Shown here: piece by piece, positions 10,929-41,087 of the stretch
Numbering within the stretch: the stretch's first letter is position 1
Layout of the letters: the number at the start of each line of letters is the position of its first letter
Assembly (NCBI RefSeq): GCF_000069785.1
Contig: NC_010528.1
Coordinates: 3,202,001 to 3,266,000, forward strand
Origin: Cupriavidus taiwanensis LMG 19424
GTDB lineage: Bacteria > Pseudomonadota > Gammaproteobacteria > Burkholderiales > Burkholderiaceae
Length of the DNA: 64,000 nucleotides
Direction of reading: 5' to 3'
Notes under the pieces: model-generated
Databases searched by the model: none
What the model was told of the DNA's origin: nothing
What the model saw: only the letters and a program-made list of their open reading frames with translations
Program-made: the position numbers and the translations under genes

Positions 10929-10942
10929 TTGATGTGAGTCAA
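10929..10942 (+). promoter_or_regulatory. FNR/Anr/Dnr-type box
   Basis: TTGAT-GTGA-GTCAA, a 5-4-5 arrangement matching the FNR-family consensus TTGATNNNNATCAA at all but one base. Its centre lies 32 bases before the centre of a weak -10 hexamer (CAAACT, 10965-10970), the spacing expected for a class II FNR-activated promoter and the same as at the hemN box (36832-36845). It drives no protein gene; the downstream segment ends at the terminator 11042-11080. Confidence 0.6.
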
Positions 10943-10976
10943 AGCACCCCGGGCCGCCCGCGCGCAAACTTCATCT

Positions 10977-11080
10977 CGCCATGAAGACGCGGGGGCGCAC
11001 TTCATGAGCACTCGCCTGCCGGCACCTCATCGTCGGCAGGCAGCCCGCACGCTGCAACGGTGTGCGGGCTTTCTTTTTTC
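10977..11080 (+). ncRNA. Candidate FNR-controlled small RNA (about 104 nt)
   Basis: Between the GntR gene and the SDR gene lies a compact unit: an FNR-type box, an expected start near 10977 and three successive hairpins ending in an intrinsic terminator. Hairpin 1 pairs ATGAAG (10981-10986) with CTTCAT (11000-11005). Hairpin 2 pairs GCCTGCCG (11014-11021) with CGGCAGGC (11034-11041) and exposes a loop containing CACCTCAT, complementary to a Shine-Dalgarno plus ATG. Hairpin 3 is the terminator with a T-rich tail. Such an organisation resembles FNR-activated regulatory RNAs known in other bacteria (FnrS in E. coli, PhrS in Pseudomonas, AniS in Neisseria), though I see no sequence match to them. 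No convincing protein frame fits. Confidence 0.5.
11042..11080 (+). terminator. Intrinsic terminator of the candidate small RNA
   Basis: AGCCCGCAC (11042-11050) pairs with GTGCGGGCT (11062-11070), followed by TTCTTTTTTC. It is not adjacent to any plus-strand protein gene end (the GntR stop is 170 bases upstream). Confidence 0.8.
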
Positions 11081-33776: not shown

Positions 33777-33852
33777 TGGCGCGCCCGGCTGGGATCGAAC
33801 CAGCAACCCCTGCCTTCGGAGGGCAGTACTCTATCCATTGAGCTACGGGCGC
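33777..33852 (-). tRNA. tRNA-Arg(CCG)
   Basis: A complete cloverleaf on the minus strand: acceptor arms GCGCCCG and CGGGCGC, D-arm with AGCTCAATGGATAGAGT, anticodon stem CTGCC/GGCAG with loop CTCCGAA giving anticodon CCG (reads CGG), T-arm GCTGG-TTCGATC-CCAGC, discriminator G and an encoded CCA at 33777-33779. It is isolated. CGG is a frequent Arg codon at this GC content. Confidence 0.95.
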
Positions 33853-36831: not shown

Positions 36832-36845
36832 TTGACCGCCGTCAA
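36832..36845 (-). promoter_or_regulatory. FNR/Anr/Dnr-type box of hemN
   Basis: TTGAC-CGCC-GTCAA, a symmetrical variant of the FNR consensus. On the minus strand TACGAT (36804-36809) lies with its centre 32 bases from the box centre, as in class II activated promoters; transcription would start near 36797. Oxygen-controlled hemN is common in proteobacteria, which supports the call. Confidence 0.65.
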
Positions 36846-40790: not shown

Positions 40791-40796
40791 CGCGCA

Positions 40797-41087
40797 TCCG
40801 ACCGGGAGAGCGCGCATCGCCTGCGCCGCCGAAGGGGTATCACCCGAAAACTCTCAGGCACCACGGACCGGTCGGATCGGCATGCAACATGCACACGATG
40901 CATGCCGCACTCTGGAGAGCGGCACCCGCCATTCGTGGCGAGCGTGCCCACCGAAGGGGCGCGCGAGGACTGGAATCCGCAGGATCCGCCTCGTAATCTC
41001 TCAGGTATCGAGGACAGAGGGGTCATCCGCCGCAGCGGATTGCTGGCCATATCGGCTGGCGATCGTTGCGGCGGATGACCCTTTTTT
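40797..41087 (+). promoter_or_regulatory. Tandem glycine riboswitch
   Basis: Two glycine-binding aptamers followed by an expression platform. Aptamer I is bounded by a perfect 10-bp P1 (ATCCGACCGG at 40797-40806 with CCGGTCGGAT at 40869-40878) and contains GGAGAG, GCCGAAGGGG and ACTCTCAGGCACC. Aptamer II repeats the pattern: CTGGAGAGC, CACCGAAGGGGC and AATCTCTCAGGTATCGAGGACAG ending at about 41019 (motifs read in parts). The terminator hairpin at 41020-41087 comes next. Glycine binding is known to turn on gcv operons in this class; here the layout supports control by transcription ending before gcvT. Confidence 0.95.
41020..41087 (+). terminator. Riboswitch-controlled intrinsic terminator
   Basis: GGTCATCCGCCGCA (41021-41034) pairs with TGCGGCGGATGACC (41067-41080); one more G-C pair brings the stem to 15 bp, with CTTTTTT after it. 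The loop can form a smaller hairpin. Its 5' arm abuts aptamer II, so ligand binding could block it through competition. Confidence 0.9.

What the first reader, a model, noticed from the sequence alone, without database searches (positions are those of the whole stretch)
10929..11080. FNR-box-driven candidate small RNA in a protein-free gap
An FNR-type box (TTGAT-GTGA-GTCAA) is followed at class II spacing by a weak -10, then about 104 bases with three hairpins and a strong intrinsic terminator. No convincing protein frame is present. The hairpin 2 loop contains CACCTCAT, complementary to a Shine-Dalgarno plus start codon, as in regulatory RNAs that block translation. FNR-activated RNAs are known (FnrS, PhrS, AniS), but I do not recognise this sequence as one of them. 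The box-to--10 distance (32 bases, centre to centre) is identical to that at the independent hemN box in this window.
Basis: partly seen in the sequence, partly recalled or inferred. Interest (0 to 1): 0.75.

Follow-up and report, generated by a model that had tools for sequence, protein, structure and literature searches.

The report
Oxygen-controlled small RNA family in Cupriavidus
The stretch very probably encodes a roughly 100-base regulatory RNA switched on at low oxygen, and it belongs to a family of sibling RNAs found across the soil-bacterium genus Cupriavidus, but what each sibling regulates is still unproven.

Summary
The box TTGATGTGAGTCAA (10929-10942), a weak -10 (10965-10970) and a three-hairpin RNA with terminator (about 10977-11079) are real. 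In 52 of 52 orthologous rows all eight box bases are kept while the spacer drifts, at one spacing. The same genome has two more copies with a box-like site in the same register; one has a TTAA variant box. The family looks genus-specific: 66 of 67 hits in an 84,980-species scan are Cupriavidus, four under other labels. The FNR protein model is over cut-off in 57 of 60 genus genomes.

The CACCTCAT loop occurs in 13 of 52 rows. What is conserved is hairpin 1, with apical GCG-GGGG-CGC in all three siblings.

For one sibling (not the window copy) the single-stranded linker UUGUCUACCC matches two sites at translation starts of a transporter mRNA; the first is found in 28 of 60 genomes. A further copy lies near phaP2, hmpA and nap genes on C. 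necator H16 pHG1.

Best reading: FNR-activated sibling sRNAs acting in trans by base pairing. No transcript was seen; targets of the window copy are unknown.

The parts
10929..10942 (+). FNR-type box TTGATGTGAGTCAA
   Evidence: Sequence; 0.06 strict sites expected per window; all 8 box bases kept in 52 of 52 P1 rows.
10965..10970 (+). -10-like hexamer CAAACT
   Evidence: The same offset (+36 from box start) has the best mean TATAAT match in all three sibling classes; TAGAAT in 14 of 14 rows of class P3.
10977..10977 (+). predicted transcription start (inferred, +/- 1-2 bases)
   Evidence: Class II geometry, box centre at -41.5 (inference); hairpin 1 starts at 10978.
10978..11009 (+). hairpin 1, the conserved family module; apical GCGGGGGCGC at 10989-10998
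   Evidence: Core in 90 of 92 rows; hairpin in 92 of 92 folds; some compensatory changes.
11010..11013 (+). short single-stranded linker (longer and seed-like in sibling class P2, only 4 bases here)
   Evidence: Fold; compare P2.
11014..11041 (+). hairpin 2, loop with CACCTCAT (11023-11030)
   Evidence: Fold; three hairpins in 52 of 52 P1 folds but the loop motif in 13 of 52.
11042..11079 (+). intrinsic terminator: stem 11042-11070, T tract 11071-11079
   Evidence: conserved in alignment A1, with compensatory pairs.

Best explanation
10977-11079 encodes a roughly 100-nt small RNA, one of three siblings in this genome, each started from a class II promoter activated by FNR (or a close CRP/FNR relative) when oxygen falls. 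The RNA folds into a nearly invariant 5' hairpin with a G-rich tip, a variable second hairpin and an intrinsic terminator. It most likely acts in trans by pairing with mRNAs through sibling-specific unpaired stretches near or in hairpin 2, lowering translation of functions not wanted at low oxygen; hairpin 1 is a shared stability or recognition module. Shown here by sequence: anatomy, conservation, siblings, co-occurrence with FNR. Inferred: transcription, oxygen response, pairing. The targets of the window copy are unknown.
For: Genus search: 54 of 60 genomes hit, 53 of them with the RNA; five of the six without a hit gave one to the covariance model later (the sixth, G048, 54% complete, was not in that sample). 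Box bases 100% in 52 of 52 P1 rows while the 22 spacer columns have a median of 50% and a range of 37-98% (ungapped, so one-base insertions lower these figures somewhat). Box-to-core distance 59-61 in 51 of 52 P1 rows; the odd value is a second GCGGGG inside one spacer (compare). Box plus core in register in 58 of 59 genus genomes; 7 of 337 other genomes match, none in register; reversed control in 2 of 396. Paralogues with the same layout. Order sample: 3 of 399 genomes match, all of this genus. FNR model over cut-off in 57 of 60. Seven distinct P1 loci keep the RNA and the GntR gene upstream but show no SDR gene downstream. A copy near phaP2, hmpA and nap genes on pHG1. For sibling P2: linker complementary to GGGUAGACAA before a short ORF and to GGUAGACAA at the start of an MFS transporter gene; first site in 28 of 60 genomes, second exact in 24 of 27 parsed rows.
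Against: No transcript or oxygen response was seen. Covariation in hairpin 1, counted on 59 of the 92 rows, is modest: the score is above all 500 shuffles, but further pair types are no better than shuffles (375 of 500 reach them) and the number of pairs with two-sided change is reached by 51 of 500. The window copy's unpaired stretches differ between clades, so no single seed is supported for it. Sites complementary to the P2 linker are not enriched genome-wide: 20 against 19 for the reversed control. The 28 transporter leaders were found by the motif, so its presence in them is ascertained, and P2 carries the full linker UUGUCUACCC in 19 of 26 rows only. The P3 sibling has TTAA in place of TTGA in 14 of 14 rows, so not all siblings have a consensus FNR box.
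Confidence: 0.75

Rival explanations
1. The promoter answers mainly to another CRP/FNR-family activator (for example an NO-responsive Dnr/NNR type) and the RNA is a denitrification or NO RNA rather than a general low-oxygen RNA.
For: Several matches to the FNR model per genome (3 in the window's own); P3 has a consistent TTAA variant box; the pHG1 copy is near nap genes and hmpA. Such regulators share the FNR-type motif (recalled).
Against: The window copy has a strict FNR-type box in 52 of 52 P1 rows; hemN, a classic FNR target (recalled), has the same layout in this window; a protein over the FNR model's cut-off is in 57 of 60 genomes.
Confidence: 0.2
2. The element is an untranslated leader or attenuator for the downstream SDR and enoyl-CoA hydratase genes, not a free RNA.
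For: Same strand, terminator about 386 bases before the SDR start; an SDR match beside it in L001-L028, 28 of 28.
Against: Seven distinct P1 loci keep GntR and the RNA without a detectable SDR in the roughly 1.5 kb held downstream (L029, L030 = L068, L064-L067, L075), and L080 shows neither gene; the P2 and P3 loci of this genome match neither and have other neighbours.
Confidence: 0.05
3. A leaderless eight-codon ORF in hairpin 1 (M-K/E-x-R-G-R-T/A/S-S-stop) is the product, alone or in a dual-function RNA.
For: The octapeptide frame is intact in 38 of 52 P1 and 22 of 26 P2 rows.
Against: It is broken in 14 of 52 P1 and 4 of 26 P2 rows and absent in 14 of 14 P3 rows, which read the core in another frame; in the six rows L023-L028 ATG has become GTG and the stop is gone. 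The tip is invariant also at third codon positions.
Confidence: 0.06
4. The RNAs act as decoys: the G-rich hairpin tip binds a protein or a C-rich RNA, and base pairing with mRNAs is secondary.
For: The tip GCGGGGGCGC is the one element shared by all siblings (51 of 52, 25 of 26, 14 of 14 rows), and 49 of 59 genus genomes have two or more box-plus-core copies in register.
Against: No binding partner known; I saw no repeated GGA-type loops as in CsrB/RsmZ (features recalled); P2 has a second conserved unpaired stretch (19 of 26 rows).
Confidence: 0.2

Closest known systems
FnrS (Escherichia coli), FNR-activated small RNA
   Same: Stand-alone small RNA under an FNR box, with an intrinsic terminator (FnrS features recalled).
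   Different: No Rfam family reaches its gathering score at this locus or at four sibling loci; 5' hairpin flush with the predicted start; sibling copies; found only in Cupriavidus in my scans.
PhrS (Pseudomonas, Anr) and AniS (Neisseria, FNR)
   Same: An anaerobic activator of the same family drives a small RNA (recalled).
   Different: No Rfam match at gathering level; the two RNAs themselves were not aligned to this one.
Rfam RF02278, Betaproteobacteria toxic small RNA
   Same: C-rich loop in a hairpin directly before a similar terminator; best sub-threshold match.
   Different: 21.6 bits against a gathering score of 50; the matching loop is in 13 of 52 P1 rows.
Sibling sRNA sets such as the Neisseria sibling sRNAs (PMC5362039, seen in a search listing only)
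   Same: Several related RNAs in one genome.
   Different: Here each sibling has an FNR-type or near-FNR box and shares hairpin 1 (Neisseria details recalled).

Membership tests
FNR-activated small RNA (functional class) | FNR box at class II distance from the start | tested here: met
   Box, -10 register and spacing in 52 of 52 P1 rows; the start itself is inferred.
FNR-activated small RNA (functional class) | Discrete RNA ending in an intrinsic terminator, not a messenger | tested here: met
   Terminator, conserved; no coding signal. By sequence only; the RNA itself was not seen.
FNR-activated small RNA (functional class) | FNR-dependent rise at low oxygen | not testable with these tools
   Needs RNA measurement.
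FnrS, PhrS, AniS as sequence families | Match to the family's covariance model | tested here: inconclusive
   No gathering-level Rfam match at this locus or in L085, L086, L131, L154, but I did not check which of the three names Rfam 15 holds.
RF02278 Betaproteobacteria toxic small RNA | Gathering score 50 bits | tested here: not met
   21.6 bits, E 0.027.
Hfq-dependent base-pairing sRNA | Hfq binding | not testable with these tools
   T tract at the terminator is compatible; not tested.

The most novel reading that the evidence does not exclude
A genus-wide set of FNR-controlled sibling sRNAs shares one nearly invariant 5' recognition hairpin (GCG-GGGG-CGC tip) that is docked by a common partner, while each sibling carries its own fast-evolving seed; one sibling shuts a transporter by pairing at two places at once, over an upstream short ORF and over the main start codon.
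Probability: 0.25. Interest if true: 0.75.

Novelty: new member of a known kind. Interest (0 to 1): 0.6.

Why it matters
Cupriavidus includes C. necator H16, a work-horse for bioplastic and hydrogen-oxidation research and a denitrifier, and C. taiwanensis, a legume symbiont that lives in low-oxygen nodules (recalled). In the titles and abstract starts that my paper searches listed I saw no FNR-driven small RNA named for this genus (several of these listings were capped far below the number of papers found). Alignments, two covariance models and a testable site in a transporter leader make oxygen control at the RNA level directly testable there.

Tried and rejected
Rfam: nothing at gathering level at the locus or in four sibling loci; RF02278 and sX12 only sub-threshold. 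Covariance model R1 at family level listed 177 of 398 genomes at E <= 0.01. In the (capped) list of places the best other-genus match has 34.5 bits; I read the 8 other-genus places in it and none has the core; they look like terminators, some with a tRNA. Model R2 in 38 other-genus genomes: best 24.3 bits, E 0.016; the six I read are not the RNA. Rows: 95 loci were considered with the rule core plus at least 7 of 8 box bases in register; 92 passed, and the three that failed (L147, L148, L150) have no core, so no row with the core was lost for want of a box. Also left out: L054 (another FNR-type box, not the RNA) and L130 (a filler stretch of no use).

Target of the tip: GCGCCCCCGC followed by ATG within 22 bases gave 49 matches in the own genome against 7 for the reversed control, which has other dinucleotides and is no fair control; several matches count one site twice or lie opposite the siblings themselves. 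Eight sites in the loci held had an open frame starting nearby; not pursued. In the transporter leaders the longest match to the tip varies from none to 10 bases and the long ones are clade-limited. L329, a 12-base match to the P2 linker over the ribosome site of an 89-aa protein without a family, binds at -23.9 kcal/mol, better than all 7526 background windows, but the same string was seen in 4 of 60 genomes: a lead only. TGCGGGGGCGC is not enriched in the genome (15 against 16 reversed).

Papers: only PMC7563307 was opened (outline with abstract, passages, section 3.2.6). It orphan starts of C. metallidurans noncoding; I could not read its supplements, so the RNA may be listed there unnamed. 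All other papers were seen in listings only.

Full report
WHAT IS THERE. TTGATGTGAGTCAA lies at 10929-10942; only two strict sites occur in the window and 0.06 are expected. The -10-like CAAACT is at 10965-10970, and 10967-11078 folds into three hairpins with z -6.7, the last a strong terminator. The comparison with the other box also holds: 36832-36845 lies at a gene with radical-SAM and HemN_C domains on the minus strand, with TACGAT at the same 32-base distance; the listed open frame runs past the box to 36854, so I assume a start downstream of it. By replicon sizes the genome (6,476,522 bases in 3 contigs) is probably Cupriavidus taiwanensis LMG 19424 (recalled).

CONSERVATION. A search of 60 genomes of the genus gave hits in 54. 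53 of these are the RNA; one (L054) is a different FNR-type box. After adding places found with a covariance model I had 92 rows in three classes: P1, the window copy, 52 rows (50 of the 53 plus L152 and L154); P2, 26 rows; P3, 14 rows. P1 rows keep all eight box bases in 52 of 52, while the spacer columns have a median identity of 50% (range 37-98%, ungapped). The -10 sits at offset +36 in all three classes. The core GCGGGGGCGC is in 51 of 52, 25 of 26 and 14 of 14 rows. All 92 folds contain hairpin 1; 87 of 92 have exactly three hairpins (P1 52 of 52, P3 14 of 14, P2 21 of 26; at least some of the five exceptions come from my end rule cutting the RNA early or from a contig end). Base-pair changes support hairpin 1 and the terminator, but for hairpin 1, counted on 59 of the 92 rows, only moderately: the covariation score beats all 500 shuffles, the count of further pair types does not.

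SIBLINGS. In the window's own genome the model finds P1 (101.8 bits), P2 at C1:1884080-1884180 (69.6 bits) and P3 at C3:1209088-1209181 (45.7 bits). P2 has TTGATATGGGTCAA 60 bases and P3 TTAATCCAGGTCAA 58 bases before the core; hairpin 1 of P3 is two pairs shorter. Over all rows, strict TTGA-N6-TCAA is present in 52 of 52 P1, 24 of 26 P2 and 0 of 14 P3; P3 has TTAA in 14 of 14 together with TAGAAT as -10 in 14 of 14. Box plus core occur in register in 58 of 59 genus genomes, twice or more in 49; 7 of 337 other family genomes match, none in register; the reversed control gives 2 of 396. Plasmid copies exist: C. taiwanensis STM 8555 plasmid I and C. necator H16 pHG1, where a full copy with TTGACTTTGGTCAA lies between phaP2 and a hypothetical gene followed by hmpA, about 4.8 kb from napE, napD and napA.

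RANGE. An exact scan of the 84,980-species collection with a hairpin 1 pattern that does not include the box gave 67 stretches: 62 labelled Cupriavidus, 2 'Ralstonia sp. 25mfcol4.1' and 2 'Burkholderiaceae bacterium 16' (contig lengths equal those of genus members G054 and G041), and one Lentisphaerae MAG with no TTGA-N6-TCAA in the 65 bases before it. That pattern fits P1 and P2, not P3, and would miss strongly diverged relatives. In a sample of 399 genomes of the order, 3 match model R2, all of this genus. The model NF008365 (FNR by my recollection of the name) is over cut-off in 57 of 60 genus genomes. The one genome with no match to it, G052 (91% complete), also has one box base changed and a mismatched hairpin 1 in its P2 copy (L159): a single suggestive case that may be an assembly gap.

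NOT A LEADER, NOT A PROTEIN. I tested 38 P1 loci, which are 36 distinct places (L068 repeats L030, L084 repeats L024). The GntR gene upstream is found in 35 of the 36 (not L080). The SDR gene downstream is not found, within the DNA held, in seven that keep GntR (L029, L030, L064-L067, L075) nor in L080; the P2 and P3 loci of this genome match neither. An octapeptide frame in hairpin 1 is intact in 38 of 52 P1 and 22 of 26 P2 rows but in 0 of 14 P3 rows, and six P1 rows have lost both ATG and stop, while the tip is kept at third positions too. So selection acts on the RNA.

HOW IT MAY WORK. The window copy therefore has no single conserved seed, and I name no target for it. For P2 the unpaired linker between hairpins 1 and 2 reads UUGUCUACCC in 19 of 26 rows. 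Its complement GGGUAGACAA lies directly before the ribosome site of a 15-21-codon ORF upstream of an MFS transporter gene (Pfam), and GGUAGACAA lies again at the transporter's own start codon. The first site occurs in 28 of 60 genus genomes by my count of the rows; the second, not used for finding them, is exact in 24 of 27 parsed rows and GGUAGAC in 26 (28 rows fetched; L370 not parsed). In the own genome the second site has one mismatch. Energies: -17.3 for site 1 (7 of 7526 background windows as good), -11.8 for the own-genome site 2 (549 of 7526), -14.5 for the commoner form of site 2 (102 of 7526). Genome-wide the 9-mer is not enriched (20 against 19). This is a lead for one sibling, not proof.

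VERDICT. An FNR-type promoter driving a stand-alone small RNA is strongly supported by comparison; FNR itself as the activator is likely; action by base pairing is the ordinary expectation for such RNAs and has a concrete lead only for sibling P2. In kind it works like FnrS, PhrS and AniS (recalled) but matches no Rfam family at gathering level. The unusual part is the genus-wide sibling set with one nearly invariant G-rich hairpin whose partner is unknown.

Noticed in passing
40793-41027 +: Two adjacent glycine riboswitch aptamer matches, both above the Rfam gathering score.
   Followed up: no
33780-33852 -: tRNA gene (Rfam RF00005).
   Followed up: no
36832-36845: Second strict FNR-type box of the window, at a hemN-like gene on the minus strand, with TACGAT in the same register.
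   Followed up: partly
L317 (G000:C1 around 893748, minus strand): Conserved short upstream ORF (15-21 codons in the rows read), about 165-250 bases before an MFS transporter start, with a GGTAGACAA motif at both starts.
   Followed up: partly
L086 and P3 rows: Sibling P3 has TTAA-N6-TCAA instead of TTGA-N6-TCAA in 14 of 14 rows and TAGAAT as -10: possibly a different CRP/FNR-family activator.
   Followed up: no
L193 (G007:C1:1864314-1864401): A different hairpin with the same TTGCGGGGGCGC tip and a terminator-like end, without an FNR box.
   Followed up: no
L384 (pHG1 of C. necator H16): Copy of the P2 type near phaP2, hmpA and nap genes; the DNA before it resembles the stretch before the chromosomal P2 copy, as if moved together (by eye).
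   Followed up: partly
G052, L159: Only one of 60 genus genomes without a match to the FNR model; its sRNA copy has one box base changed and a mismatched stem.
   Followed up: no
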